Origin: Alphaproteobacteria bacterium
Lineage (GTDB): Bacteria; Pseudomonadota; Alphaproteobacteria; SMXS01
Reading direction: 5' to 3'
Assembly (NCBI GenBank): GCA_030836535.1
Contig: JAURPT010000075.1
Span: 1-33,094 of the forward strand
DNA length: 33,094 nt
A program made the position numbers and the translations under genes. Positions 6,260 to 19,456 of the stretch are shown piece after piece. The notes beneath the pieces were generated by a model. It ran no database searches. It saw only the letters and a program-made list of their open reading frames with translations, and had not been told where the DNA came from. The number at the start of each line of letters is the position of its first letter. Position 1 is the stretch's first letter.

Positions 6260-7288
6260 ATGGCGCACATCCCGAACGATGCACGCAACCAGCAGCTATA
6301 CCTGAAACGCGTGCCACACGGCACAGCCGGGCCGGATGATTTTGAAGTCCGCGAGATAGCAGTGCCAGAGCCGGGCGACGGCCAAGTGTTGGTGGAAGCC
6401 CACTATCTTTCGGTCGACGCGGCCCTGCGCCTTATCATGCAAGACAGTGACGACTTTTTGTTCCGGGTGAAACCGGGCGATTTGGTACGCGGCTCCGCAG
6501 CGAGTCGCGTGATTGAGTCCAACAACCCCGCCTTTGCTGAAGGAGACTGGGTTACCGGTTCAATGGGTGTACAGAACTACTCTGTCATGGAAGCCGAAGA
6601 ACTGGAGAAATGCGACCCGGATGCCGCCCCGCTGCCCACCTGGCTGGGCGGCATGGGTGTGTCCGGCCTGACAGCTTATTTCGCCGTGCTGGAAGAGTGC
6701 AAACCTGGCCCCGGCACTACGTTTTTGGTCAATGGGGCCGCCGGCGCTGTTGGGTCAATCGCCGGGCAAATCGCCCGCATTCAGGGGGCTAAGGTCATCG
6801 GCGTGACGGGTTCTGACGAAAAATGTAAATGGTTGACCGAAGAACTCGGCTTTGACGTGGCCATCAACTACAAGACGGCAGATCTGTATGACGCCATGCT
6901 TGAGGCTGCCCCCGACCGGATCGATGCCATCTTCGACAATGTCGGTGGTCCTATCCTGAATGAAAGCCTGCGCCTGATTGGCATGAAAGGCACCGTTTTG
7001 CTGTGTGGTGCCACGTCTCAATATACCGAGGAAGAAGTCACCGGCCCTTCCAACTATATCTGGCTGGGCACCATGCGCGCCCGTATGCAGGGCTTTGTGG
7101 TTTATGACTTTGCGGAAAAGTTTGAAGAAGCCCGCGCACAGATGGCCGAATGGGTCAAAAGTGGCAAGCTGGTCATGCGTGACAACATGATCGACGGCGA
7201 TGTCGCCGACTATCCCGCCATCTTCCAGCAACTCTATGAGGGGACCGATCTCGGCAAGATGCTGGTGAAATTGCCAGCTGCTGACTAG
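6260..7288 (+). CDS. Zinc-independent MDR-family NADP-dependent oxidoreductase
   Basis: A 342-residue medium-chain reductase of the prostaglandin reductase / CurA-like branch, enzymes that reduce activated double bonds with NADPH in the cytosol. Visible features are the N-terminal catalytic fold (PEPGDGQVLVEAHYLSVDA), the YFAVLEECKPGPG linker and the nucleotide-binding motif VNGAAGAVGSIAGQIA, followed by GAKVIGVTGSDEKC. The usual structural zinc cysteines of alcohol dehydrogenases are absent. Length is typical. The ATG at 6260 follows GAGGGGGGAACAC, an excellent ribosome site. The gene converges on the VOC gene and their stop codons overlap at 7285-7288. The substrate cannot be told from sequence; the surrounding catabolic genes suggest an unsaturated carbonyl intermediate. 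Confidence 0.88.
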   Translation: MAHIPNDARNQQLYLKRVPHGTAGPDDFEVREIAVPEPGDGQVLVEAHYLSVDAALRLIMQDSDDFLFRVKPGDLVRGSAASRVIESNNPAFAEGDWVTGSMGVQNYSVMEAEELEKCDPDAAPLPTWLGGMGVSGLTAYFAVLEECKPGPGTTFLVNGAAGAVGSIAGQIARIQGAKVIGVTGSDEKCKWLTEELGFDVAINYKTADLYDAMLEAAPDRIDAIFDNVGGPILNESLRLIGMKGTVLLCGATSQYTEEEVTGPSNYIWLGTMRARMQGFVVYDFAEKFEEARAQMAEWVKSGKLVMRDNMIDGDVADYPAIFQQLYEGTDLGKMLVKLPAAD

Positions 7289-7785
7289 TCCTTGCCCGTT
7301 GCCCGCCTGTAGGGAATGGGCGATTCGTTAAAGTCCATGACCATACGACCCCTCTCGCTGGTGATTTCCTGGAATTCCACCACATTGCCATCCGGGTCGC
7401 GGGCATAGGTGGTAATCACCGTCGGGCCAAGCTGAACCGGTGGTGTGTGGAACTCAACACCTGCGGCTGACAGACGCTCATATTCCCCCTGCACGTCGGT
7501 CACATCAAAGCAGATATGCGTCAGGCCATGGTTGTTGACCGGGCGGTTGGGTACATGGGGTGCAGGCTCTGGTTCGGCATATTCAAACAGCTCAACATGT
7601 AGATTGCTGAACTGCACCATGACCGCGCGGGTCTTGACACCTTTCAGGGCCGTTACCGCCTCAATCTCGGGGCCCTCCAGCTCGACATCCACGACGATAT
7701 CACCGCCTAACAAGTCACCATAAAAGCCAATCAGGCGATCCAGATCACCGGTAGAGATAGATGTGTGATGCACGCCATTAATCAT
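7285..7785 (-). CDS. VOC family (glyoxalase/dioxygenase fold) protein
   Basis: A 166-residue vicinal-oxygen-chelate protein. Two beta-alpha-beta-beta-beta units are recognisable: INGVHHTSISTGDLDRLIGF at the start, then HVELFEY, and a second unit with LTHICFDVTDVQGEY and DPDGNVVEFQEI. Metal-ligand-like residues are His (VHHTS), His (LTHIC) and Glu (VVEFQE). Members include glyoxalases, epimerases and extradiol dioxygenases; the exact reaction cannot be assigned. ATG 7785 is chosen because it follows GGGGGAACAAA; a longer open frame upstream overlaps the divergent nitroreductase and is not credible. The start lies 67 bases from that of the nitroreductase, so the two probably share a divergent promoter region. 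Confidence 0.85.
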   Translation of the reverse strand: MINGVHHTSISTGDLDRLIGFYGDLLGGDIVVDVELEGPEIEAVTALKGVKTRAVMVQFSNLHVELFEYAEPEPAPHVPNRPVNNHGLTHICFDVTDVQGEYERLSAAGVEFHTPPVQLGPTVITTYARDPDGNVVEFQEITSERGRMVMDFNESPIPYRRATGKD

Positions 7786-7852
7786 TTTGTTCCCCCTTTT
7801 GCGCCAGCCATTACATGATAGGACCATGCCAGCAATTCCCAGGGAGGGGAAA

Positions 7853-8497
7853 ATGAAAAATGACGCCAACTTGTTTGATACCATGTTCACCATGCGCGCC
7901 ATGCGCCGGCTGAAACCTGATCCTGTTCCTGAAGAACTGGTAGAACAAATCCTCCGTGCGGGACAGGCGGCACCCAATGGCGGCAATGCCCAGAACTGGG
8001 GTTTCATCGTGGTCAAAGACCCCAACGTCAAGAAACAGATCCAACACTTCTACGCCAAAGCCTATGACGACATGGTCGGCCCGCACTATCAGTCGATCAT
8101 CGATAGCATGGAAGAGGGCGCCGAAAAGGACAAATTTGTCCGTCAGATTTCGGCCACAAAGCACCTGACCGACCACTACCACGAAGCACCCGTGATGATT
8201 GTCGCCTGCCTGAATGTTGGTGCGGCCGGTGCCAATGCGGGCAGTGGGGCCTCCATTTACCCTGCAGTGCAGAACATGCTGTTGGCCGCCCGGGCATTGG
8301 GGCTCGGAGCAACACTGACATCACGCCACATGATCTTTGGGCAGGAAGTTGATGCCGCCCTGGGCCTGCCAGACGACATCAAGTCATTCGCCATTCTGCC
8401 AATTGGTTATCCTGAGGGAAATTTCGGGCCGGTTGGGCGCGGGCCGCTGGAAGAGATTGTCTACAAAGACCAGTGGGGGGCTTCCTATTTCACGTGA
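7853..8497 (+). CDS. Nitroreductase family protein
   Basis: A 214-residue FMN-dependent nitroreductase-fold protein. The N-terminal phosphate-contacting region (FTMRAMRRLKPDPVPEEL) and the FMN-pocket stretch RAGQAAPNGGNAQNWGFIVV are typical, as is the C-terminal AARALGLGATLTSRH helix followed by LPIGYPEG. Such enzymes reduce nitro groups, quinones, enones or flavins with NAD(P)H and act as dimers. The ATG at 7853 sits behind a very strong ribosome site (AGGGAGGGGAAA); upstream in-frame starts lack one. It is divergent from the VOC gene and converges on the TPR gene. Confidence 0.88.
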   Translation: MKNDANLFDTMFTMRAMRRLKPDPVPEELVEQILRAGQAAPNGGNAQNWGFIVVKDPNVKKQIQHFYAKAYDDMVGPHYQSIIDSMEEGAEKDKFVRQISATKHLTDHYHEAPVMIVACLNVGAAGANAGSGASIYPAVQNMLLAARALGLGATLTSRHMIFGQEVDAALGLPDDIKSFAILPIGYPEGNFGPVGRGPLEEIVYKDQWGASYFT

Positions 8498-8508
8498 GGC
8501 GGCACGCC

Positions 8509-9009
8509 CTATTGTGTTTTTTCCTGTGCGATAAGCCCCTGTACCAATGCGATATTGCTCTCCATCTGTGCGAGGCCAACCTCGTCAGGCTCAAAACCAT
8601 GGGCTTTTTGGTAGTCAGCCAGCGCCTTGCCATAGACCCTGAGGAAGAAATGTACATTGCCCCGATTATTCCAGGCCTGCCACAGCGTGCCGTCATGGCG
8701 GATCGCGGTATTGCAATTTTCCAGGGCTTCCTGCAATTGCCCCATGCCCAAATGGGCAACGCATAGGCTATTCATGGCATAGGCCATTTCATTCATATGC
8801 AGGCCGCGCTCCATCTGCTTCTCGATGATTGCAATGCCTTGCTCATATTTGCCTTCTTCAATAAGGCCGGTGCCTTCGCGCAGCTCATGAGAAGAATGAA
8901 ACCAGATAATATGGCCCGACATTCTGTGTTCGCGAAAGTCCGACGCCTGCACGTCCGTCATCGCAATACAGGCCACCACAACACTGCAGAGGGCAATCCA
9001 CCGATTCAT
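8509..9009 (-). CDS. Exported TPR-repeat protein
   Basis: A 166-residue protein with a signal peptide (MNRWIALCSVVVACIAMTDV, probable cleavage after QA in VQASD), so it should act in the periplasm. The mature part contains tetratricopeptide-like helix pairs: GLIEEGKYEQGIAIIEKQME, then MNSLCVAHLGMGQLQEALEN, then AWNNRGNVHFFLRVYGKALA with YQKAHGFEPDE. TPR proteins scaffold other proteins; no catalytic domain is visible. The ATG at 9009 has a good ribosome site (GGAGA, 6-base spacing). The gene is divergent from the LLM flavoprotein gene and convergent with the nitroreductase. Partner unknown. Confidence 0.8.
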   Translation of the reverse strand: MNRWIALCSVVVACIAMTDVQASDFREHRMSGHIIWFHSSHELREGTGLIEEGKYEQGIAIIEKQMERGLHMNEMAYAMNSLCVAHLGMGQLQEALENCNTAIRHDGTLWQAWNNRGNVHFFLRVYGKALADYQKAHGFEPDEVGLAQMESNIALVQGLIAQEKTQ

Positions 9010-9136
9010 ACGTCTCTCCTTCCCGGGGCATCATAGCACAAAGCCATGCATCTGCTCAAAAGCAACACATGTTGTCCGTGCTACGCCGGTTTCAGCATGT
9101 AAGATCAAACCTTTCGGTACTGCGGGAGCATGAGAC

Positions 9137-10228
9137 ATGAAATTCGGGGGAATGGTTGCCACCAAAATCGATGATTGGGAAATCTTTCCCTACCTGGAAG
9201 AGCTGGGCTACGACAGCGGCTGGGCCCCCGACAGCCAGATGATCTGGTCGGACTGCTACGCCACTCTCGCCCTTGCAGCCGCCAACACCTCCCGCATCAG
9301 GCTCGGGACAGGGGTTGCTATCGCGGGGACAAGGCTGGCACCTGTGACAGCCCATTCCATCGCCAGCATTAACAAGCTGGCACCCGGTCGTACATTCCTG
9401 GCCATGGGCACCGGGCATACCGCCATGCGGGTGATGGGCCATAACCCCGTCACGATCAACGAATTTGAAGACCAATTGCGTGTCATCACGGGACTATTGC
9501 GAGGCGAAGAGGTGGACTATGCCCCATCCGGCAAAGAGTCCAAACCCATCCGCTTTCTGGACCGGCAACTTGACTGCCTCAATCTGGACGATCCAATCCC
9601 GCTCTATGTCGCCGCCAACGGACCCCGCGCACTGGCTGCCACCGGCAAGTATGGGGACGGGCGGATTTCGGCAGGGAACGAATCCGATAAGATGTTTGCC
9701 CGTAATCTCGGTCGCATGGAGGCAGCAGCAACCGAGGCCGGTCGTACACTGGATAATGAATTCCATACCATGTGCCTGACATATGCGTCGGTTCTGCAAC
9801 CCGGCGACAGCCTGACCGATGCCCGGGTGATTGAAGAAATCGGCGGCCAGGTCGTCTCCAGCCTTCACTTCTATTACGAGCTGTATGCGCTGCAGGGCAG
9901 CGACCACTTCATCCCCGATGTGATCCGGGATGTTTGGGAAGACTACAAGCAGCATGTGGAAGACGACATGCCCGAAGAACGCCGCCACCAGCGGATCCAT
10001 GAAGGGCATTGTTCGTTCCTGACGGAGGCCGAGCGGAAATTCGTAACGCCCACGACCATTCGCACCACCATGGGGCTTGTCGGCACACCTGATGAAATTC
10101 TGGAACGGGTCGATGATTTGGAGCGTCGCGGCCTGAAAGAAATCGTCTTGCTGCCGGACTTCAACCGCAGGCGGGAGGTATTTTCCGACTTTGCTAAACA
10201 CGTGATTGTGCCGCACCACGCTGCCTGA
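9137..10228 (+). CDS. LLM-class (luciferase-like) flavin-dependent oxidoreductase
   Basis: A 363-residue TIM-barrel flavoprotein of the bacterial luciferase-like superfamily. Marker segments are YLEELGYDSGWAPDSQMIWS near the N terminus, TSRIRLGTGVAIAGTRLAPV, the GRTFLAMGTGHTAMRVMG region, LYVAANGPRALAATGKYGDG and the C-terminal VGTPDEILERVDDLERRGL. Members are monooxygenases or reductases using FMNH2 or F420; cofactor and substrate cannot be decided here. ATG 9137 follows GGGAG with 8-base spacing. The downstream MFS transporter starts 68 bases later but seems to have its own promoter region. Confidence 0.88.
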   Translation: MKFGGMVATKIDDWEIFPYLEELGYDSGWAPDSQMIWSDCYATLALAAANTSRIRLGTGVAIAGTRLAPVTAHSIASINKLAPGRTFLAMGTGHTAMRVMGHNPVTINEFEDQLRVITGLLRGEEVDYAPSGKESKPIRFLDRQLDCLNLDDPIPLYVAANGPRALAATGKYGDGRISAGNESDKMFARNLGRMEAAATEAGRTLDNEFHTMCLTYASVLQPGDSLTDARVIEEIGGQVVSSLHFYYELYALQGSDHFIPDVIRDVWEDYKQHVEDDMPEERRHQRIHEGHCSFLTEAERKFVTPTTIRTTMGLVGTPDEILERVDDLERRGLKEIVLLPDFNRRREVFSDFAKHVIVPHHAA

Positions 10229-10289
10229 CCAAAAAAAATCCACTAATTTGGTCGGTCGCATTGACCGTCTTACATAGTACGCGTAAACA
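10227..10289 (+). promoter_or_regulatory. Inverted repeats and candidate promoter before the MFS transporter gene
   Basis: Two nested inverted repeats lie between the stop of the LLM gene and the ATG at 10296. One is GACCAAA (10227-10233) with TTTGGTC (10247-10253). The other is CGGTC (10253-10257) with GACCG (10263-10267), centred on GCATT. TTGACC at 10261-10266 with TAAACA at 10284-10289 (17-base spacer) could be a promoter, placing the transcript start almost at the ATG. TTGGTC (10248) with TACATA (10271) is an alternative. The repeats resemble operators of dimeric repressors, but no regulator gene is nearby. Confidence 0.3.
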
Positions 10290-10295
10290 CCGTGC

Positions 10296-11735
10296 ATGAG
10301 TAATGCCCCGCTAACACAGGCGAACCAGTCGCCGTCCGAAGCATCTGCGCTGCCTGCCGCTGTATCTCCCGAACAGCGCAGCATCAAGGCGCGGCTTATG
10401 CTGTTGCGGGATACCAACTTTCTGACCTATTGGATTTCGGGCAATATCAGTTGGCTGGGCGACCTTTTTGCCCTGATCGCCATGCCCCTGCTGATCATCA
10501 ACATGACGAATAGTGACGCCAGTGCGCTGGGTCTTGTCATGTTCGTATCCGGCATCCCACGGGCCGTTCTCATGCTGCTGGGTGGTGTGCTGATTGACCG
10601 CTTCTCTGCCTTCCGCATGGTGATGATGGCCCGCATTGTGATGGGGCTTACGCAGGCAGCCCTGGCAATCGTTGCCCTCATGGGCATTGCCGAAATGTGG
10701 ATGGTTTATGTCGTGGCGACAGTGGGTGGCACAGTGGGTGCGTTCCTGTTCCCCGCGCAGATGACGCTGATGCCCAGCGTGCTTGAAAAGGACGACCTGC
10801 CAGCAGGCAACGCCCTGAACACGACCATGCAGCAGACCCTGCAAAGCTTTGCACCCATGATCGTAGGCTTCCTGATTGCCTTCCTGTCCGGTTATGACAT
10901 CTACGCGCCTGAAGGCCAGACCATGGATGCGGAACAGGAAATGGTCGCCTATGGCTATGCCTTCGCCATCAACGCGATCACCTTCTTTGTGTCGGCGGTG
11001 ATGCTGTCCTATGTCCGGGTTAAGCCACTGGAACAGACAGACGACCACGCACAACCTATGATCTCGAGCATCGTCGCTGGGTTCCGCGCTGTGTGGATTG
11101 ACGGCCCGCTGCGGGCGTTTATCATCTATATCGCCCTTTCGCAGCTTTTCATGATGGGGAACATCATGGTCGGCCAGCCCATGCTGGCGGACATCCGAAG
11201 CGAAACCTACGGCATCCCTTCTGCGGCCCTGATGGGCATGATGGGCGCGGCCTCCGGCGCTGGCGCGGTGATCGCTTCGCTCTTTGCCGGTTTTATTGCC
11301 CGGCCATCTGCTGCCTTCTACGGCCCCATGATGATGCTGATTGCCGCCTTCCGGGGCGCAACCATGCTTTTGCTGGGTGTACTCACAGACCTGACCAGCG
11401 TCCTCATCCTGTTTGGCTGTTTTGGCCTATTCATGGGCTATACCAGCGTCTTCTTCATGACCTGGATGCAAACACGCGTGGATATCTCGCTCCTGGGTCG
11501 AATGATGAGTGTCATGATGTTTGCCATGATGGGCGTTGCCCCTATTTCGGCTGCCTTCTGGGGTTGGGGGATCGATGCCGGCGGGCTGGAAAGCCTCTAC
11601 TACATCTCGGGCATCTGCATGGTGGTTGTGGCCGTGGGTGGTTTGCTGAGCCCCTCCATCAAGTTAATGGGCTATTCATCGGAATATGCCCAACAGGCAA
11701 AGAAAGAACGCTTGGCGGCCAAAAAAGCAAGCTGA
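10296..11735 (+). CDS. MFS transporter
   Basis: A 479-residue inner-membrane transporter of the major facilitator superfamily with about 12 hydrophobic segments. The first follows a 45-residue soluble N terminus (TYWISGNISWLGDLFALIAM). The loop after the second segment, GGVLIDRFSAFRMVMMARI, matches the G-x-x-x-D-R-x motif A of MFS carriers. The long charged loop around YAPEGQTMDAEQEMVAYGYA is unusual but open. The architecture resembles the enterobactin-exporter/macrolide-efflux-like branch; the substrate is unknown. The ATG has no obvious ribosome site, so a leaderless or near-leaderless transcript is possible. The stop codon lies inside the downstream terminator hairpin. Confidence 0.85.
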   Translation: MSNAPLTQANQSPSEASALPAAVSPEQRSIKARLMLLRDTNFLTYWISGNISWLGDLFALIAMPLLIINMTNSDASALGLVMFVSGIPRAVLMLLGGVLIDRFSAFRMVMMARIVMGLTQAALAIVALMGIAEMWMVYVVATVGGTVGAFLFPAQMTLMPSVLEKDDLPAGNALNTTMQQTLQSFAPMIVGFLIAFLSGYDIYAPEGQTMDAEQEMVAYGYAFAINAITFFVSAVMLSYVRVKPLEQTDDHAQPMISSIVAGFRAVWIDGPLRAFIIYIALSQLFMMGNIMVGQPMLADIRSETYGIPSAALMGMMGAASGAGAVIASLFAGFIARPSAAFYGPMMMLIAAFRGATMLLLGVLTDLTSVLILFGCFGLFMGYTSVFFMTWMQTRVDISLLGRMMSVMMFAMMGVAPISAAFWGWGIDAGGLESLYYISGICMVVVAVGGLLSPSIKLMGYSSEYAQQAKKERLAAKKAS

Positions 11736-11760
11736 TCAGCTTGCTGATTGGCCCTTTTTC
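11717..11760 (+). terminator. Rho-independent terminator of the MFS gene, overlapping its stop codon
   Basis: A perfect 18-base palindrome (11727-11744, GCAAGCTGA and TCAGCTTGC) sits inside an outer GGCCAA (11717-11722) and TTGGCC (11748-11753) pair, followed by CTTTTTC. The TGA stop at 11733-11735 is in the middle of the palindrome. Confidence 0.65.
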
Positions 11761-11806
11761 CTCGACCCATCCTCCTTATGTTATGGTGTGGGCAGGAGGG
11801 GTAGGC

Positions 11807-12295
11807 ATGGCGTTTCGGCAACTGACAGACAAGACCCGTACAGGCTTCGACTCGCTACGAAGCGGCACCAGCGCCATGAGCGACTTCATCAAGCGCGTCA
11901 TGCCGTCCAATTTTCATATCAAGAAATTGGGACCCGAGGGCCTGATCGCCCTGAAAAAAGAACTGGTCGCTGCAAGGCCGATTTTTGAAGAAGCCGGGTT
12001 CGACCTGGCGGCTGTTCAGTTGGAAATGACCCTGTCACCCCGCATGTTGGCTTATTTCCATATTACGGATCACTTCGACAGGGAAGCGGCAGAGGCCATC
12101 CACAAAGCCAATAAGGACAGCCCCATCCTCAATACCGCCTTCTCTGCCCTTATTCGTACGGCAAGCTGGGAAGCGGCCGCAGAAGAACAAGAGATGCCGA
12201 TGCAGACCATCACAATCGATGTGTCGCTGACACCCGGGGTTCACCTGACCTTCCAGGATGACCCACCAGACGGCGAAGAGCCTGACCTGATTTAG
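11807..12295 (+). CDS. Unrecognised 162-residue soluble protein
   Basis: I do not recognise this family. The protein has no signal peptide or membrane segment, an alternating helical first two thirds (VMPSNFHIKKLGPEGLIALK, then REAAEAIHKANKDSPILNTA) and an acidic tail (DDPPDGEEPDLI). The ATG at 11807 has a near-ideal ribosome site (AGGAGG, about 8 bases upstream), which makes the gene credible. The longer frame to the left overlaps the MFS gene and its terminator and is not used. It converges on the FkbM gene, with 4 bases between the stops. Coding-like base use and the strong ribosome site are the main evidence. Confidence 0.7.
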   Translation: MAFRQLTDKTRTGFDSLRSGTSAMSDFIKRVMPSNFHIKKLGPEGLIALKKELVAARPIFEEAGFDLAAVQLEMTLSPRMLAYFHITDHFDREAAEAIHKANKDSPILNTAFSALIRTASWEAAAEEQEMPMQTITIDVSLTPGVHLTFQDDPPDGEEPDLI

Positions 12296-12299
12296 TGAC

Positions 12300-13058
12300 C
12301 TAGGTGGCCCGCGATGCGCGCAAGATGCCGTAGCCGTCGTGGTGTTCTTCACTGGTGATGTGAAAGCCCAACTCCCTCAAACGCATCGCGGCCTCATCAG
12401 CACTGTGTTCAGGGAAGTTCGTGAGATGATATTCCATGGCCACATGGGAAATCTTCTGCCAGCTGGCCGTATCTTCAAGTAACTCCCATTCAGCCCCTTC
12501 GCAGTCGATCTTGGCAAAATCGACATGGCCACCAAGTCTTTCAATCGCGGTCGCAAAGGATGTTTTAGGTAGGGTGCCGCTGTCAGACGCTTTGGCCATG
12601 GTACCGACAAGCGATCGCAGAAAACTAAGCTCTACTTTGCCATCCTCTTTCCCAAGGGCCTCCATAAAATAGTCTGTCCGCGCGGCTTTACACTGGGCCG
12701 CCAGAAAAGGCTCCAGTGACGGGTTAACCTCGTAATGATGGATACGAGCGTCGGGAAAAGCCTGCCGCGCCGCCAAGGCAAAGAACCCCGCATTGGCACC
12801 CACGTCCAACACCGTTTCCACCTTCACCCCAGACCGGACGACGCCAGCCATGTCGTAGTCGTCGTTTAGCAACACCTGGATGAATCCAGAATGCACGCCA
12901 TCGTCATCGGGCGCGGACAAGGGTACCATCCTGCCCTCAAACCACATTTCTTCTGGCATCTTGAACCACGCGCCGCGACTGAAGGGCACGCGCAGCTTCT
13001 TGGCGGCCCTACGCCGTTTCAGAAGCATTTTCAAACGCTGAAGGAAGGATTGGGACAT
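12300..13058 (-). CDS. FkbM-family SAM-dependent methyltransferase
   Basis: A class I methyltransferase of the FkbM type, which usually O-methylates sugars or other hydroxylated compounds. The SAM-binding motif is clear (VLDVGANAGFFALAARQAF), followed by the acidic strand HHYEVNPS. The FkbM-typical FAKIDCEGAEWELLED comes later, with AMEYHL near the C terminus. From ATG 13058 the protein has 252 residues; an in-frame ATG at 13163 would add 35 residues of low similarity. Neither start has a good ribosome site, so the start is uncertain. There is no glycosyltransferase or polysaccharide gene nearby to indicate its substrate. Confidence 0.82.
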   Translation of the reverse strand: MSQSFLQRLKMLLKRRRAAKKLRVPFSRGAWFKMPEEMWFEGRMVPLSAPDDDGVHSGFIQVLLNDDYDMAGVVRSGVKVETVLDVGANAGFFALAARQAFPDARIHHYEVNPSLEPFLAAQCKAARTDYFMEALGKEDGKVELSFLRSLVGTMAKASDSGTLPKTSFATAIERLGGHVDFAKIDCEGAEWELLEDTASWQKISHVAMEYHLTNFPEHSADEAAMRLRELGFHITSEEHHDGYGILRASRAT

Positions 13059-13261
13059 GGCTGAACCAGACAGGCGCACTGAGTGAAGAGACGATGATGA
13101 CACACTCTCCAGTTCTAACCACCGGCAAACGACAAAAGCCACAAATTTATTTTCTGCATCCATGCAGGTTTCTTATCAAATTTTAACAAAATCCTGATGG
13201 AAGTGGGGCAGCCCTCGCCTGCATTATGCTGCCATCACACTGGTCCGGACTACCCAAGTGC

Positions 13262-13723
13262 ATGAATAACCAACTTAAACAGCCAAGAGACAAAATGCTG
13301 GCAAGACTGGCCCGGCTATCGGGCGAAACGCTCTATGGCTACTTCTTCATTGCACGCTCCAGCCGCATGCAGGACATGCTGAATGACGAACGCGGTTTCC
13401 TGCCCTTCGAGACCCTGCAGGGCGAACTGATGATGATCTCCAAGCACACCATTTCGGACATTACCGAGATCATCAACATCACCGCGCTGGAACATGGCAT
13501 CAATCCCTATACCAGCCTGGGCTTTACCCCGACCAACAACTTCTCCAAGACCGAGCGGGAATACAAACAGCTGATCCTGCGGTGCCACCCGGACCGGTAC
13601 AAAGGTGCCGAATATCCAGAAGAACTGCACGAGCGAATGGACAGTGTGTGCCAACACATCAATGCGCATTTCAACCAGATCAAAAAAGAAGGCCACCTGT
13701 TGAAGGTGGCCTCCCACGGATAG
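13262..13723 (+). CDS. J-domain (DnaJ-like) protein with a C-terminal J domain
   Basis: A 153-residue protein. The C-terminal third has the helix II - HPD - helix III layout of a J domain: [18 protein letters not shown], with the diagnostic HPD at residues 109-111, then [20 protein letters not shown] domains stimulate ATP hydrolysis by Hsp70 chaperones. The N-terminal 90 residues are not recognisable and lack the Gly/Phe-rich and zinc-finger parts of DnaJ, so this is a class III (type C) J protein. The chosen ATG at 13262 lies within a longer frame that opens at 13226. The last 12 codons contain the antisense terminator of the neighbouring gene. Confidence 0.75.
13682..13712 (-). terminator. 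Rho-independent terminator of the flavoprotein gene, inside the J-domain gene
   Basis: A 9-bp perfect stem, AGGCCACCT (13690-13698) and AGGTGGCCT (13704-13712), has a 5-base loop. On the minus strand it is followed by TCTTTTTTG (13689-13681). It lies 25 bases past the stop of the gene at 13737-14972 and inside the last codons of the convergent J-domain gene. Confidence 0.75.
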
Positions 13724-13736
13724 CACTGGCTGGTTG

Positions 13737-14972
13737 TTAAACCGGCTGGGTCAGGGCGATATAGGACGGGTCCTTATCGTGGCCAAAGAATGTCTTGCCG
13801 ATATTCTCGTAATGCCGATAAGAAATCAGCGCATGGTTGGCGGCCTGCTGGGCATCGCGCAACTGGCGTTCCAGCGGGCTGTCCATGCGGCAACCGGTCG
13901 TGGCCGCCGTATTGTTGATCATGGAAACAACCTCACGGCAGGTTTGGGCCGCATGGGTGCAAGCCAATAGTGCCGGCCAGAAGACCTCCCAATCCGGGAT
14001 CAACCGCCCGCCATCCTTGGGCAACGGGCCGAGGTGGTCTTCCATGGCATCCTGCGTTTCCATCATGAAGGCTCGCACGGCCATCAGCTTGGCCTTGGCC
14101 TCACCCACCCGATATTGCACGACGGACTGGTCTTTCAGCGACGTCGATAGCCCCCAGGGCACCTTGCCCATGGCCAGGCCGACGAAATTATCGATCGCCC
14201 CCTTACAGATGCCCAGCGCCACTGCTGACTTATTGTAGATGGCATGGGTCGGATTGCGGTAGGTCGGGTTGTCCCACAACTCGCTGGGCGCCAGCGAGCG
14301 GCCGGGCAGCAGATGCTCGGGCGGCACGTAACAATCTGCCATCAGCACGTCATGGCTGCCGGAGCCGCGCATGCCGGAAGTGTCCCACGTGTCGATAATT
14401 TCGAACTCACCCTTGGGCACCATGAAAGAGGCATCTGCTGGTTCGCCGGTGCGGTCGTCGATGCAGCTGGGGCCCATCAGATAGTTCCAAGTGGCGTTTT
14501 GGCACCCACTGGCGAAACTGCCTTGGTAATTCAGCCGCCAGCCGTCGCCGTCCGGGTGTACGCCGCGGCCGAGGTTTGGCCCATTAGCCGGGCCATGGCC
14601 GGAACACACAAGGGCGTTCCAGTCATTAAAGATTTCCTGCGCCAAAGGCATAGGCATCTGACGGATGATCAGCGCGTTGATCTCAGATGAAATCTGCACA
14701 CACCAGCCGACGGAGCCATCAATGGCCGAGGCAGCCTCGATAATTTCTATCTGTTCGCGGGCGCGCAAATTCTCGCCGCCCAGCTCTGGCGGCAAGGCGT
14801 ATCGGTACAGGCCGATCTCGGCCATTTTGTCGGATGCCCAACCGGGCAGGTGCCGCAATTCCTGCGCTTCGTCACCGGCGGCATAGAGGTCTTCCTTGAT
14901 GGACTCGATGCGGTCGAGCATCGGTGTCTTAGAGATTTCCTTTTGGCGCGCGATAATGTCGTCATTAACCAT
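13737..14972 (-). CDS. Acyl-CoA-dehydrogenase-fold flavoprotein (hydroxylase-like)
   Basis: A 411-residue protein of the acyl-CoA dehydrogenase fold, closest in pattern to the flavin-dependent group D monooxygenases (HsaA and p-hydroxyphenylacetate hydroxylase types) rather than true fatty-acyl-CoA dehydrogenases. Visible markers are LPPELGGENLRAREQIEIIE, the SAIDGSVGWCVQISSEINAL segment and WDTSGMRGSGSHDVLMADCY. The C-terminal helical domain has QTCREVVSMINNTAATTGCR. These enzymes use FMNH2 or FADH2 supplied by a separate reductase to hydroxylate phenolic or steroid rings. The ATG at 14972 has a strong GGAGGAGG ribosome site. A hairpin lies in its 5' leader and a terminator follows it, so it is probably monocistronic. 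Substrate not known. Confidence 0.82.
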   Translation of the reverse strand: MVNDDIIARQKEISKTPMLDRIESIKEDLYAAGDEAQELRHLPGWASDKMAEIGLYRYALPPELGGENLRAREQIEIIEAASAIDGSVGWCVQISSEINALIIRQMPMPLAQEIFNDWNALVCSGHGPANGPNLGRGVHPDGDGWRLNYQGSFASGCQNATWNYLMGPSCIDDRTGEPADASFMVPKGEFEIIDTWDTSGMRGSGSHDVLMADCYVPPEHLLPGRSLAPSELWDNPTYRNPTHAIYNKSAVALGICKGAIDNFVGLAMGKVPWGLSTSLKDQSVVQYRVGEAKAKLMAVRAFMMETQDAMEDHLGPLPKDGGRLIPDWEVFWPALLACTHAAQTCREVVSMINNTAATTGCRMDSPLERQLRDAQQAANHALISYRHYENIGKTFFGHDKDPSYIALTQPV

Positions 14973-15003
14973 GACAGTCCTCCTCCCTCACCGCCTACCC
15001 GGC

Positions 15004-15024
15004 GGCCACCTATGTTCGGTGGCC
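15004..15024 (-). promoter_or_regulatory. Hairpin in the 5' leader of the flavoprotein gene
   Basis: GGCCACC (15004-15010) and GGTGGCC (15018-15024) form a perfect 7-bp stem with a 7-base loop, 31 bases upstream of the ATG at 14972. There is no T run, so it is not a plain terminator. The same stem core occurs in the terminator after this gene (13690-13712). It may act as an operator or leader structure; the role is inferred. Confidence 0.4.
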
Positions 15025-15265
15025 ACTTAATATTGGGCGATATGTGTATTTCCCCTGCTCAGATGATAACCGCGCCGTGCCAGAAAGTAACTATCGGTTT
15101 TGGGAGGTGAATTTTTTTGCTGCCTTACTCATCAGACAATTACTATGCCTATAAAGTGTTCAGTCGGTTCACATGGATTATTTTTAAGGGTAAACTGCGT
15201 TGCCGGAGAAATTTGAGATTTCATAAAACGTTTAATAGAGCTTATTGAACAGAAAGGATGAAACG

Positions 15266-16099
15266 ATGATCGGTATCGCAGAATCTTTTAAGTCACTACT
15301 GAACAGAACCGAGCAAACGGCCCCGCAAATAGATAGCTCTTTTCAAGCTAGCGGTCTTGATCAAGAAGACGAAGTGGACTCTTTGATAGACTTCGAAGTC
15401 CAAGACAATTGGCCCAAGGGTACTATCGGAATGTTGGAGCACGACCTTTGGGGAATGAGCTTTGCAATTCACTATAGAGGTTCAAAAGGACAGGAATCTA
15501 CCCGCAGAATCACGCTCCACAACTTGTATCTCCTAAAAAATCACCACCTGATGATGACAGCTCGGTGTCATGAACGAGGTGCAAGCCGAAGCTTCAGAGT
15601 TGACCGCATCGACGAAGTGATAGACTTGGATGGTATTATCTACAATGTAGAGGAGTTCTTTAGGGACCAACTTCACCTCGACATGAGCGGATTAGCAACG
15701 ACGCCTGATCTTGAAACAATATCCATGCCTGGAAACGCGCAGAAAGCGCAGTCTAAGGTTGGATTAGCCCTGCTAGTGGCATTTGCAAAATCAGATCAAT
15801 TCCTTGATGACCAAGAATTATTAGCCATCATGAATTATGTGGAAGACGAAGCATATGAAGCGTCCATCCCCATTGACGATGAAGACTATGAAGCGTTGAT
15901 TTCTTATGTCAGGAGGCTTCGCCCTCCCGATGATCTAGTCCTGAAAGCTTTACATGAGATTAAGCGTTGGCCATCAAAGAAGCAAAACCGCTTCCTAAAA
16001 GCAGCTAAGAGAGTCGTTCTTGCAGACGGCGTAGTCACGGAAGAAGAAGCTCAAATGTGGGTGGACTTTGTCGACTGGATCGAAGACCGAGCAAGTTAG
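15266..16099 (+). CDS. WYL-like plus TerB-like two-domain protein
   Basis: A 277-residue soluble protein. Residues about 66-137 resemble a WYL sensor domain (FAIHYRGSKG, then RRITLHNLYLL, MTARCHERGASRSFRVDRID and IIYNVEEFF). The C-terminal 120 residues resemble a TerB helical domain (GLALLVAFAKSDQFLDDQEL and AAKRVVLADGVVTEEEAQMW, with acidic pairs spaced as in TerB). WYL domains bind ligands such as nucleic acid; TerB domains occur in stress-response and defence systems. No DNA-binding helix-turn-helix is seen. ATG 15266 follows AAAGGATGAAACG. The gene and its upstream DNA are clearly richer in A and T than the neighbours, and it lies on the strand opposite to the flanking catabolic genes, which suggests acquisition by transfer. 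Both domain assignments are by pattern only. Confidence 0.7.
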   Translation: MIGIAESFKSLLNRTEQTAPQIDSSFQASGLDQEDEVDSLIDFEVQDNWPKGTIGMLEHDLWGMSFAIHYRGSKGQESTRRITLHNLYLLKNHHLMMTARCHERGASRSFRVDRIDEVIDLDGIIYNVEEFFRDQLHLDMSGLATTPDLETISMPGNAQKAQSKVGLALLVAFAKSDQFLDDQELLAIMNYVEDEAYEASIPIDDEDYEALISYVRRLRPPDDLVLKALHEIKRWPSKKQNRFLKAAKRVVLADGVVTEEEAQMWVDFVDWIEDRAS

Positions 16100-16129
16100 C
16101 TCAGCGGGCCGGACCCATACCCACGGGCC

Positions 16130-17647
16130 CTACTCCGCCGCCGCCTTCACCTCGCCCAGGGCGCCTTCAATTATGCTCAGCATTTCGTCTCGGGTGGGGC
16201 CTTCAACAATGCTGGCGCTGGCGTTTTTCTTGCGGCCACGCAGCATGTATTTGTAGATCGTGCTGCGGATTTTCTTGTCCTTCAGGAACGCGCCCGGTTT
16301 TTCTTCCAACTGGAAGGTGCGCAACGTCCCGCGAACCACATGGAGTTCGTTCTGGGCAGCCGCGGCAATGGCGTCTGCAAAGGCCAGCCCGAACCAGGCC
16401 TTCAGGCCGTCGGGCTTCTCCACCGATTTACCGGCCATAATGGCGCGGGCACGCTTGATGGCGTTGCGGTCTTCATTCTGGCTGGCGTCAAAGATCGGTC
16501 GAAGTTCATCTTCCGTGCGCTCGTCGAGCAGAATGGCCCGCTTGGCGGGGTCAGCTTCGTCTTCCAGCACCTGGGCCATAATGTGCGCATGGTGCATGCC
16601 AATGGCACAGCCGCGGCCATAAAGCGGGTTGGTGCGCAGGGTAGCATCGCCTACGGCAAAGAAGTTCAGGGCGACAGGTGTTTTGGTGCCGTCTTCGGCC
16701 TCATGCACATAGTGCCGCCAGGTGGTACGAATATCGGCAAAACCAAAACTGTCGGTCGTCGGGGTTGACCGGGCCGGGTCCACCCAGTCTGCCGTGCCAG
16801 GGATCGCCATGAGCATTTCGTGGAAGGCGTCTTCATCGTTAAAGGCCTTGCGCAGCATCACTTCATCGGGGTGGGCACACATGATGGTGGCAAAATGGCC
16901 ATTGTCGCCGGGGAAGATGCCATATTTTACATAGCCAAGGTCACCCGCCTGTCGCTTACCGGAATTGGAGTCGGGCTCTTCCATGCCCGGGTTCAACTTG
17001 TAATGGCGGGTGTAATAGACCATTTCGGCCTCTTCATCTTCCACCGCAATGTCTGCCCCCCTATCCTTCAGCCAGGCCGGGAATTTCGTGGTGCGCCCGG
17101 ACGCATCAACGACAACATCGAACAGGGCTTCTTCGTCACCCAGTTGCACACCGCGCACATTGACGGGTTGGCCGTCGGCGGTATCGGCCAGAAGGCCCGT
17201 AACCACCTGGCCGCTGTTAATGGTTATGGTGGGCTGCCGTTCTGCATAGGCGCGCAGCACGGTCTCCATTGTGGCGCGACGGCACATCAGAATCCACAAC
17301 CGTTCGTCCCCCGGCTGGGGTGTGTATGCCGCGCGCATCTTGGGTGGGATCATCTCCCCCATGCCAACACGGCGGGCACCGGCGGCTTCAAAGTCATCGA
17401 GCAGGTCGGGGTAATTGTCCTGTAAAATGTTACACAGAAGACCGAGGAAAGCGTGCGGGTGGCGGAACTGCCCTGCCCCCTTGCGGTTCCAGTCGAAGAA
17501 CGCCCTGTCGGCAGGGATTTCATCTGCCCCGGCGGGTGGTGGCGGCACGTCCCGCTCCAGCACCGTGACGTCATGCCCCTTGCGTGCCAGGGCCAGAGAC
17601 GCCCCCAAGCCGGCAATGCCGGCCCCAATAACAGCAACCCGGCTCAT
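16130..17647 (-). CDS. FAD-dependent oxidoreductase (monooxygenase/halogenase-like fold)
   Basis: A 505-residue flavoprotein. The N-terminal dinucleotide motif is VAVIGAGIAGLGASLALARK with GHDVTVLERD, and a second FAD-contact region includes VDASGRTTKFPAWL. The GD motif region near AVGDATLRTNPLYGRGCAIG places it with GR2-type monooxygenases and flavin-dependent halogenase relatives. I see no clear halogenase WxWxIP motif, so a hydroxylase or dehydrogenase is more likely. The start ATG lies 2 bases after the stop of the epoxide-hydrolase-like gene upstream, so the two are almost certainly co-transcribed and may act in sequence on one substrate. It converges on the WYL/TerB gene with 30 bases between stops. 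Confidence 0.82.
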   Translation of the reverse strand: MSRVAVIGAGIAGLGASLALARKGHDVTVLERDVPPPPAGADEIPADRAFFDWNRKGAGQFRHPHAFLGLLCNILQDNYPDLLDDFEAAGARRVGMGEMIPPKMRAAYTPQPGDERLWILMCRRATMETVLRAYAERQPTITINSGQVVTGLLADTADGQPVNVRGVQLGDEEALFDVVVDASGRTTKFPAWLKDRGADIAVEDEEAEMVYYTRHYKLNPGMEEPDSNSGKRQAGDLGYVKYGIFPGDNGHFATIMCAHPDEVMLRKAFNDEDAFHEMLMAIPGTADWVDPARSTPTTDSFGFADIRTTWRHYVHEAEDGTKTPVALNFFAVGDATLRTNPLYGRGCAIGMHHAHIMAQVLEDEADPAKRAILLDERTEDELRPIFDASQNEDRNAIKRARAIMAGKSVEKPDGLKAWFGLAFADAIAAAAQNELHVVRGTLRTFQLEEKPGAFLKDKKIRSTIYKYMLRGRKKNASASIVEGPTRDEMLSIIEGALGEVKAAAE

Positions 17648-17649
17648 GG

Positions 17650-18624
17650 CTAGAGCATCCCCAAGAAGCGGGTAATGGCGTCGTTCACCTGTTCGGGCGC
17701 TTCCTGCTGGGTCCAGTGGCCCACACCGGGGATCAACTCGTTAATCCGCAGATCGGTGACGTGATTACCCATATTCGCATAGGCATCACCTGACATGGTG
17801 ATCACGCCATCTTTTTCGCCCGCAACAAACATGCAGGGTTGGTTAACCACGCCGGGCGCCCCTTCGGTGTTGCGCCAGGTGGTATTGAGGTTGCGGTAAT
17901 AATTCAACGGCCCGCGCATGCCAGAGCCGCCAAATTCGGAGACATAATAATCCAGATCTTCATCCGTCAGCCAGGCAGGCATCTCATCCGGGTTCGGCAG
18001 GTTGGAGAGTAGATCCGCATCCGGCCCCTGGGCGGCCATGGCCGCCGCATTTTCCGCCCCTTCGCCCGAGCCCATATAGATGAATTTGCGCAGGAATGTG
18101 CGCACGTCGCCGCCTAATTCAGCCTCGGCCACACCTGGCTCCTGGAAGTAGAGCTGGTAGAAGAACTGGTCCTTGAAGACCTGTTTGAGCATATCGAGCG
18201 GTGGGAAGTCTCCACGTGGTGAAAACGGCACCGAGAGAATGCCAACAGCGGTGATTTTGTCCGGGTGCCATTCTGCAGCCCCCCAGGCGGTGGGTGCGCC
18301 CCAGTCGTGCCCCATGATAATAGCCGTCTCATAGCCCAGGGCCGGGATCAGCCCGATCATGTTGTCGACCAGGGTCTTCTGGTTGTACTGGTCGATGTCA
18401 TAAGGTTTATCGGACCTGCCATAGCCGGGCATGTCGACCGCCACGGCATGGTAGCCAGCAGCTGCAATAGCCGCAAAACAATGGCGCCAGCTATACCAGC
18501 TTTCCGGGAAACCGTGGCACATCAGCACCAGGCCTTTGGTTGCGCCTTCTGGCAGTTGTTCTGCGCAGTTCAGCATGATGCCGTTGGTTTCCACCCGCCG
18601 ATGTATGATGTGGTCAACTGCCAT
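17650..18624 (-). CDS. Alpha/beta-hydrolase, epoxide-hydrolase-like
   Basis: A 324-residue alpha/beta-hydrolase of the epoxide hydrolase group, which opens epoxides to diols through an ester intermediate. The oxyanion motif is MCHGFPESWYSWRHC (HGFPE at residues 37-41). The nucleophile Asp107 lies in MGHDWGAP, the acid is probably Asp272 (GEKDGV), and the base is His303 (GVGHWTQQEAP). A cap-domain Tyr in GPLNYYRN could polarise the epoxide. The nucleophile is Asp rather than Ser, and Trp follows it as in epoxide hydrolases and haloalkane dehalogenases; the HGFPE motif favours the former. ATG 18624 follows GGGGAGCGATC. It forms an operon with the FAD oxidoreductase. Confidence 0.88.
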   Translation of the reverse strand: MAVDHIIHRRVETNGIMLNCAEQLPEGATKGLVLMCHGFPESWYSWRHCFAAIAAAGYHAVAVDMPGYGRSDKPYDIDQYNQKTLVDNMIGLIPALGYETAIIMGHDWGAPTAWGAAEWHPDKITAVGILSVPFSPRGDFPPLDMLKQVFKDQFFYQLYFQEPGVAEAELGGDVRTFLRKFIYMGSGEGAENAAAMAAQGPDADLLSNLPNPDEMPAWLTDEDLDYYVSEFGGSGMRGPLNYYRNLNTTWRNTEGAPGVVNQPCMFVAGEKDGVITMSGDAYANMGNHVTDLRINELIPGVGHWTQQEAPEQVNDAITRFLGML

Positions 18625-18874: not shown

Positions 18875-19456
18875 CAGCTGGGTCATGCCCATGGGGATGA
18901 TGAAGAACCCCTGACCATGCATGAACTGCAGAACCTGATGCACCAGTTGATCACTAGTGGTTATGAAACCACCCAAAGCGCTATTGCCCATGGTATGTGG
19001 CTGCTTGTGCGCCAACCGGAATTGCAGGACATGCTGCGCAATGAGCCAGAGAAGATGAAAAAGTTCATTGAGGAGAGCCAGCGGTGGGAAAGTCCCGTGC
19101 AGGGCCTGGCACGGACAACCACCCGGGAGATTGAGCTGAACGGCACGACGATCCCCGCCAATTCACCGGTGATTGTGCGCTACGGCGCGGCCAACCGGGA
19201 CGCCGAGATGTTTGAATGCCCGCACAAATTTGACATCGACCGCAAGAATGCCGGGGCACATATGGCTTTTGGTTCCGGCGCCCATTTCTGTGTCGGCGCT
19301 ATGCTGGCCCGCCAGGAGATGGCCTCATCCTTCACCGCCCTGCTAAACCGCATGGATGACATCAAACTGGCCCAACCGCTGGCCGACCTGGTGCACGAGC
19401 CGAGCATGTTCTTCCTGCCGATCAAACACATGCACCTCGCCTTCAACAAGCGCTGA
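18875..19456 (+). pseudogene. 5'-truncated cytochrome P450 gene
   Basis: Only the C-terminal half or less of a bacterial P450 remains. It keeps the I-helix oxygen-activation motif (LITSGYETTQSAIAHG), the ExxR motif (EESQRWESPV) and the haem-binding loop FGSGAHFCVGAMLARQEM with the Cys ligand. Similarity begins abruptly at QLGHAHGDDEEPLTMHELQ, just after an in-frame TAG at 18872-18874. About 200 N-terminal residues expected for the family are not found in any frame of the preceding 250 bases. Translation could begin at ATG 18917, but a protein without the substrate-recognition half could not be a working P450. The region 18625-18874 holds only the hydrolase promoter region and unrecognised sequence. 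Confidence 0.8.

What the first reader, a model, noticed from the sequence alone, without database searches (positions are those of the whole stretch)
15101..16099. Low-GC WYL/TerB-type gene inserted among catabolic genes
It is the clearest foreign-looking gene in the window: AT-rich, on the opposite strand, with its own AT-rich promoter region, and combining a ligand-sensing-like and a TerB-like domain without a DNA-binding domain. WYL and TerB domains both recur in stress and anti-phage systems, so it may be a solitary sensor or effector of an undescribed system.
Basis: partly seen in the sequence, partly recalled or inferred. Interest (0 to 1): 0.5.

Follow-up and report, generated by a model that had tools for sequence, protein, structure and literature searches.

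The report
Acquired WYL–TerB two-domain sensor protein
A stray, probably horizontally acquired gene encodes a small protein that joins a DNA-fragment-sensing type of domain to a stress-response type of domain; its relatives sit in phages and beside a DNA-repair gene, so it is probably a damage or infection sensor, though nobody has tested it.

Summary
It has a WYL domain (Pfam E 3.7e-7), a divergent TerB domain (E 7e-4, below Pfam's cut-off, supported by fold and family) and no HTH match. It is the lowest-GC ORF against 146 own-genome ORFs (46.1% versus 56.1±2.1%). It lies in a 3.8-kb segment replaced by about 0.2 kb in the only congener searched.

The family is real, sparse and splits in two. 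Clade A (13 tree rows, window included) mostly keeps the arginine groove that binds ssDNA in PafBC; its members are orphans, lie beside prophage genes, or are in viral contigs (15 found). Clade B (40 rows) has a degraded groove and sits in fixed operons: directly after mfd in 28 of 30 loci examined in one order, and after MoxR-DUF58-DUF4381 in five genomes.

Most likely mechanism (inferred): an HTH-less sensor in which ssDNA or oligonucleotides bind the WYL groove and TerB relays the signal to a partner protein. Anti-phage action is possible but untested. The fusion was noted in print in 2014; I found no paper on the mfd or phage-tail contexts.

The parts
15266..16099 (+). WYL-TerB gene, 277 aa, ATG start, stop at 16097-16099
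   Evidence: SD-like AAAGGA at 15253-15258
15269..15316 (+). N-terminal helix (residues 2-17), weakly amphipathic; helix only by prediction
   Evidence: AF2 model; hydrophobic moment 0.42
15464..15619 (+). WYL domain (residues 67-118), Sm/SH3-like barrel with R80, R104, R108, R111, R114
   Evidence: Pfam, fold match to CapW/PafBC/BrxR, alignment to PafC
15764..16057 (+). TerB-like helical domain (residues 167-264) with two acidic D-x6-E sites, D177/E184 and D254/E261
   Evidence: Pfam sub-threshold, 2h5n Z 8.3, 3.1 A over 95 residues, invariant in A1
14973..15265 (.). AT-rich divergent intergenic region (44.4% GC)
12306..16129 (.). Segment absent from the congener G001 (about 209 bp there): FkbM-type methyltransferase, DUF6812-DnaJ protein, acyl-CoA-dehydrogenase-like gene and the WYL-TerB gene
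12300..13163 (-). FkbM-domain methyltransferase, in the same segment (its last bases touch the segment's edge)
13226..13723 (+). DUF6812 + DnaJ-like protein, in the same segment (both Pfam matches just below cut-off)
13737..14972 (-). Acyl-CoA dehydrogenase-like flavoprotein (catabolic neighbour); its congener orthologue is on another contig
16130..17647 (-). FAD-dependent oxidoreductase (catabolic neighbour), syntenic with G001

Best explanation
The gene is a probably horizontally acquired, phage-associated member of an HTH-less WYL-TerB family. Proposed mechanism: the WYL barrel binds ssDNA or short oligonucleotides, made when DNA is damaged or a phage replicates, in its arginine groove. Binding changes the position of the C-terminal TerB helical domain, which relays the signal by docking on a partner protein, possibly with a metal at its acidic sites. 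It would thus act directly on proteins, not as a transcription factor. Shown: the gene, both domains (TerB by weak sequence match plus fold), absence of an HTH match, groove arginines, foreign composition, absence from the congener, phage-borne relatives. Inferred: ssDNA as ligand, relay to TerB, partner and output.
For: WYL Pfam hit and fold: best WYL-half matches are CapW bound to ssDNA (Z 6.4), PafBC (6.3), BrxR (6.1). The HMMER alignment to PafC puts R111 and R114 on PafC R201/R204, and R80, R104 and R108 on the positions of PafB R181, R204 and R208 (counted by hand; PafB-PafC offset of 10 is my inference). Mutating those PafB residues abolishes ssDNA binding (PMC11804915, passages read). 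8 of 13 clade-A rows keep all four arginines 104/108/111/114 and 13 of 13 keep R108; 15 of 15 viral members keep R80, C101, H102, R104, R108. TerB half: 2h5n Z 8.3, 7 of 10 members match TerB. Acquisition: lowest GC against 146 ORFs, congener lacks the segment, 0 of 9 other same-genus or same-family genomes have a match. Phage carriage: tail genes beside L069 and L070, integrase near L054, 15 IMG/VR loci. The sister clade is coupled to the repair gene mfd.
Against: No ligand or partner was tested. PafB Y196, needed for ssDNA binding, falls on about M96 here, not Tyr. Clade B, with the DNA-repair neighbour, has largely lost the groove (0 of 40 rows keep all four arginines), so repair context and groove do not go together, except that G058 (L060) keeps two of the four. 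TerB is below Pfam's cut-off, and Z 8.3 for a helical domain is not decisive by the tool's own note. No partner gene recurs beside clade-A members. Only this genome carries the gene among the 10 searched of its family.
Confidence: 0.42

Rival explanations
1. Anti-phage moron: the protein senses superinfecting phage DNA through WYL, and TerB triggers exclusion or growth arrest, as the Ter system is proposed to do.
For: Relatives lie opposite-strand beside tape-measure genes: a tape-measure homologue on the opposite strand in 7 of 14 viral loci and a zinc-ribbon-like ORF on the opposite strand in 7 of 14; L054 is in an integrase-bearing region that IMG/VR also holds as viral. Ter genes are proposed to act against superinfecting phages (PMC7824862, passages read).
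Against: No defence gene was recognised next to the window gene or its cellular relatives; PADLOC gave only models that share the WYL domain; half the family is in housekeeping operons.
Confidence: 0.2
2. Repair accessory: the family's ancestral role is with Mfd (transcription-coupled repair) and the window gene does the same job away from mfd.
For: mfd directly upstream, same strand, in 28 of 30 loci of the G055 order (27 within 70 bp, many overlapping), and 97 bp upstream in G058 of another order; TRCF and helicase domains confirmed for G055.
Against: No clade-A member was seen next to mfd; the clades are deeply split (100/98, with long branches), and clade B has lost the groove that the window protein keeps.
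Confidence: 0.2
3. The WYL groove binds a nucleotide signal (for example a Ter-type nucleoside or a cyclic nucleotide) instead of ssDNA.
For: Ligand sites vary widely among WYL proteins (PMC9122588, passages read); Tyr196 of PafB is not conserved here.
Against: The arginine pattern is that of ssDNA-binding PafB; the own genome has no TerD.
Confidence: 0.1
4. A neutral passenger on its way to loss, with no current function.
For: Orphan gene with foreign composition, present in 1 of 10 genomes of the family.
Against: The frame is intact with a ribosome-binding site, and the family-invariant residues of both domains are kept.
Confidence: 0.08

Closest known systems
WYL-TerB fusions listed by Makarova et al. 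2014
   Same: Same two domains in one protein
   Different: There only a mention in a list; no context, clades or groove analysis of them in the passages I read
PafBC, CapW, DriD, BrxR (WYL transcription factors)
   Same: WYL barrel with arginine groove; ssDNA ligand reported for PafBC and DriD (listing), and a CapW-ssDNA structure exists (9c5g)
   Different: They have a wHTH and a WCX domain; here no HTH is matched, and a TerB-like domain follows the WYL domain
TerB / Ter stress system (COG3793; PDB 2ou3, 2h5n)
   Same: TerB-like helical fold with acidic D-x6-E sites
   Different: No Ter operon recognised nearby; TerD absent from the genome
Bacterial Pif1 helicases with a WYL domain (search listing only)
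   Same: WYL outside transcription factors, in a nucleic-acid enzyme
   Different: No helicase domain here

Membership tests
WYL domain superfamily (PF13280) | Profile match above Pfam cut-off | tested here: met
   30.5 bits against cut-off 21.8
WYL domain superfamily (PF13280) | Sm/SH3-like barrel with positively charged groove | tested here: met
   Fold matches to CapW, PafBC, BrxR; R80, R104, R108, R111, R114 aligned to groove positions
WYL transcription factor (YafY/PafBC/CapW type) | N-terminal winged HTH | tested here: not met
   No HTH in Pfam; the N-terminal 50 residues hold one helix and disorder
WYL transcription factor (YafY/PafBC/CapW type) | C-terminal WCX extension | tested here: inconclusive
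   TerB-like helices occupy the C-terminus; WCX not searched as a separate model
TerB (PF05099) | Profile match above Pfam cut-off | tested here: not met
   20.3 bits against 24.4, so filed as TerB-like
TerB (PF05099) | TerB helical fold | tested here: inconclusive
   2h5n Z 8.3, 3.1 A, 95 residues; clade-B model: 2ou3 (COG3793) Z 8.6, 4.0 A, 110 residues; the tool warns that helical domains reach such Z by chance
Ter stress system | TerC/TerD/TerY partners nearby or in the genome | tested here: not met
   TerD absent from own genome; TerC and TerY not searched; no Ter gene recognised in the neighbours
Anti-phage defence system | Demonstrated protection or a recognised defence operon | not testable with these tools
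   PADLOC gave only models that share the WYL domain; protection needs an experiment

The most novel reading that the evidence does not exclude
WYL-TerB proteins are a general non-transcriptional relay of DNA distress: one lineage is built into the mfd (and MoxR-DUF58) operons of Alphaproteobacteria-type genomes as a partner of transcription-coupled repair, and phages carry the other lineage, with the ssDNA groove intact, as accessory genes; the window gene is a copy of the latter taken up by a bacterium.
Probability: 0.22. Interest if true: 0.65.

Novelty: new variant of a known kind. Interest (0 to 1): 0.42.

Why it matters
WYL domains are known mainly as ssDNA-sensing or ligand-sensing parts of transcription factors. 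An HTH-less family with a conserved gene order after mfd in one bacterial order, and with groove-bearing relatives beside phage tail genes, offers direct tests of two questions: does Mfd have an unrecognised protein partner, and what does TerB do in a cell without a Ter operon?

Tried and rejected
A mobile-element boundary in the window: no tRNA; the repeats found in 14500-16700 were short or imperfect and none framed the gene; no integrase among the 10 window proteins scanned around it. Plasmid, phage-record and viral-contig searches with the window protein itself: nothing. NCBIfam: nothing. PDB by single sequence: one chance-like hit. A link with the DnaJ-like neighbour (TerB and J domains co-occur in DjlA, recalled): phmmer found its homologue in none of the ORFs of the 30 homologue regions L054-L073 and L133-L142, so not argued; one HPD-bearing ORF near the WYL-only gene of L071 was seen in the same call and not followed. 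A promoter at 15168-15196: 4 promoter-like sites against 1.5±1.1 in shuffles, not argued. Literature for the mfd link: searches gave no relevant paper in the titles listed (8 of 34 and 8 of 73 listed). WYL+prophage+TerB gave two papers, one read in passages, one seen only in the listing. Six of 59 family matches did not span both domains and were left out of the tree (L071, L072, L073, L139, L140, L141); identical rows (L142 repeats L057) were dropped. Only 30 loci from the 44 matching genomes of the G055 order were held and tested for mfd. Alignment A3 shares one sequence (L005) with A1, so the hhalign result (99.9%) is not independent of it. Prophage contexts rest on profile hits for L054, L057/L142, L069 and L070 and on reading ORFs by eye for L138. 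The ORF calling for neighbours was a greedy longest-ORF script, which in high-GC loci can miss or invent genes; it missed the target itself in L054.

Full report
Observation. The gene at 15266-16099 (+) encodes 277 aa. It matches WYL (E 3.7e-7) and, below Pfam's cut-off, TerB (E 7.2e-4). Its GC is 46.1% against 56.1±2.1% for 146 own-genome ORFs of at least 200 aa, none as low; the same holds for GC3 and codon adaptation (a sample of 208,737 of 2,676,118 bases). It is single-copy in its genome; a separate TerB-only ORF on contig C50 is the next-best hit.

Segment. Order and orientation of the window genes from 7288 to 12295 and from 16130 to 18624 are kept on one contig of the only congener searched (G001), at about 39-86% identity per gene. 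Between them the congener has about 209 bp where the window has 3.8 kb (window 12305 and 16130 map to positions 235 and 444 of the congener stretch). The segment holds an FkbM methyltransferase, a DUF6812-DnaJ-like protein, an acyl-CoA-dehydrogenase-like gene whose congener orthologue is on another contig, and the WYL-TerB gene. Gain here, not loss there, is favoured by composition and by 0 of 9 other genomes of the genus and family having a match, but no outgroup settles it. Synteny on both sides speaks against a chimeric contig.

Structure. The AlphaFold2 model (10 sequences, pLDDT 81.8, pTM 0.81) shows a short N-terminal helix, a disordered linker, a barrel, then a helical domain. Best matches: 2h5n for the helical half (Z 8.3, 3.1 A over 95 residues), CapW with ssDNA 9c5g (Z 6.4, 2.2 A, 61 residues), PafBC and BrxR for the barrel. 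Foldseek alone gave no match with E<=0.001; its top rows are PafBC and BrxR. The profile of A1 finds PafBC (E 2.3e-6), 2h5n (2e-4), PafC (5e-4), a CapW chain (7tb5, 4e-3) and TerB 2jxu (0.04) by sequence, and also an unrelated surface protein at 2e-3. In the alignment with PafC, R111 and R114 fall on R201 and R204, and R80, R104 and R108 on the positions of PafB R181, R204 and R208, counting by hand with an assumed PafB-PafC offset of 10. Mutations of these PafB residues abolish ssDNA binding (PMC11804915, passages read). Y196 falls on about M96. DriD is reported to bind ssDNA in its WYL domain (PMC12340889, start of abstract in the search listing).

Family. With single-sequence search 17 of 385 class genomes have a match (E<=1e-3, window genome included); with the A1 profile 26 of 372 (E<=1e-9), and 35 of 398 in the phylum at E<=1e-6, most of them covering one domain only. 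A genome-contig scan with two narrow motifs found two named relatives, Azospirillum cavernae and an alphaproteobacterial MAG. Of 59 family matches in the loci examined, 53 span both domains. The tree of 53 rows splits 13 against 40 (support 100/98; long branches, root arbitrary). Clade A: window, L054-L059, L061, L062, L068-L070, L138. All four arginines 104/108/111/114 are kept in 8 of 13, R108 in 13 of 13. Clade B: 0 of 40 keep all four.

Contexts, clade B. In the order of G055, 44 of 100 genomes have a member. Of 30 loci held from them, 28 have mfd directly upstream on the same strand: 27 within 70 bp, often overlapping, and one at 975 bp; two show no mfd in the roughly 1.5 kb held. The group includes another family of that order (G749). 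G058, from another order, has mfd 97 bp upstream. Mfd identity: TRCF, UvrB-interaction, RID and helicase domains. Related genomes are not independent events. Five genomes from two families (L065, L066, L133, L134, L135) have the gene at the end of a MoxR-DUF58-DUF4381-type operon (domains profile-tested in L135 only). The mfd-linked protein itself has no Pfam match; its own model (pLDDT 84.5, pTM 0.57) matches 2ou3, a COG3793 tellurite resistance protein (Z 8.6), and PafBC/CapW (Z 6.5/6.0).

Contexts, clade A. Of the 12 rows other than the window, L054 has an integrase and a DUF5131 gene of a phage family within a few kb, L069 and L070 tail tape-measure genes, L057/L142 a phage-type DnaB helicase and a cytosine methylase, and L138 phage-like ORFs by eye; the other seven show no shared neighbour except within one genus (L058, L061), e.g. 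after groEL (L055). IMG/VR holds 14 relatives of L070 and one contig matching the Azospirillum copy. A tape-measure homologue lies on the opposite strand in 7 of the 14, and a zinc-ribbon-like ORF on the opposite strand in 7 of 14; some of the 14 are near-identical contigs. All 15 keep R80, C101, H102, R104 and R108.

Interpretation. What it works like: a WYL-type nucleic-acid sensor, without the HTH that makes other WYL proteins transcription factors, coupled to a TerB-like domain. What it is: a WYL superfamily member, TerB-like by fold, not a recognised part of a Ter operon, not a WYL transcription factor. The mfd link was not found in print; searches likewise gave no paper on phage-tail WYL-TerB genes. 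The fusion itself is in print.

Noticed in passing
15004-15024: 7-bp hairpin GGCCACC/GGTGGCC in the divergent intergenic region, terminator-like or a possible operator.
   Followed up: no
13226-13723: DUF6812 plus DnaJ-like protein in the same segment absent from the congener; a 38%-identical paralogue is on contig C93 of the own genome.
   Followed up: partly
18917-19456: Cytochrome P450 ORF holding only the C-terminal part of the family profile (positions 261-431 of 462): a truncated remnant or split gene.
   Followed up: no
L065, L066, L133, L134, L135: WYL-TerB gene as the last gene of a MoxR-DUF58-DUF4381-type operon in two families of the class.
   Followed up: partly
L136:2403-3718: A divergent family member directly after a DUF2497 (PopZ-type, recalled) ORF.
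   Followed up: no
L132:1650-1943: Separate TerB-only ORF in the own genome (contig C50).
   Followed up: no
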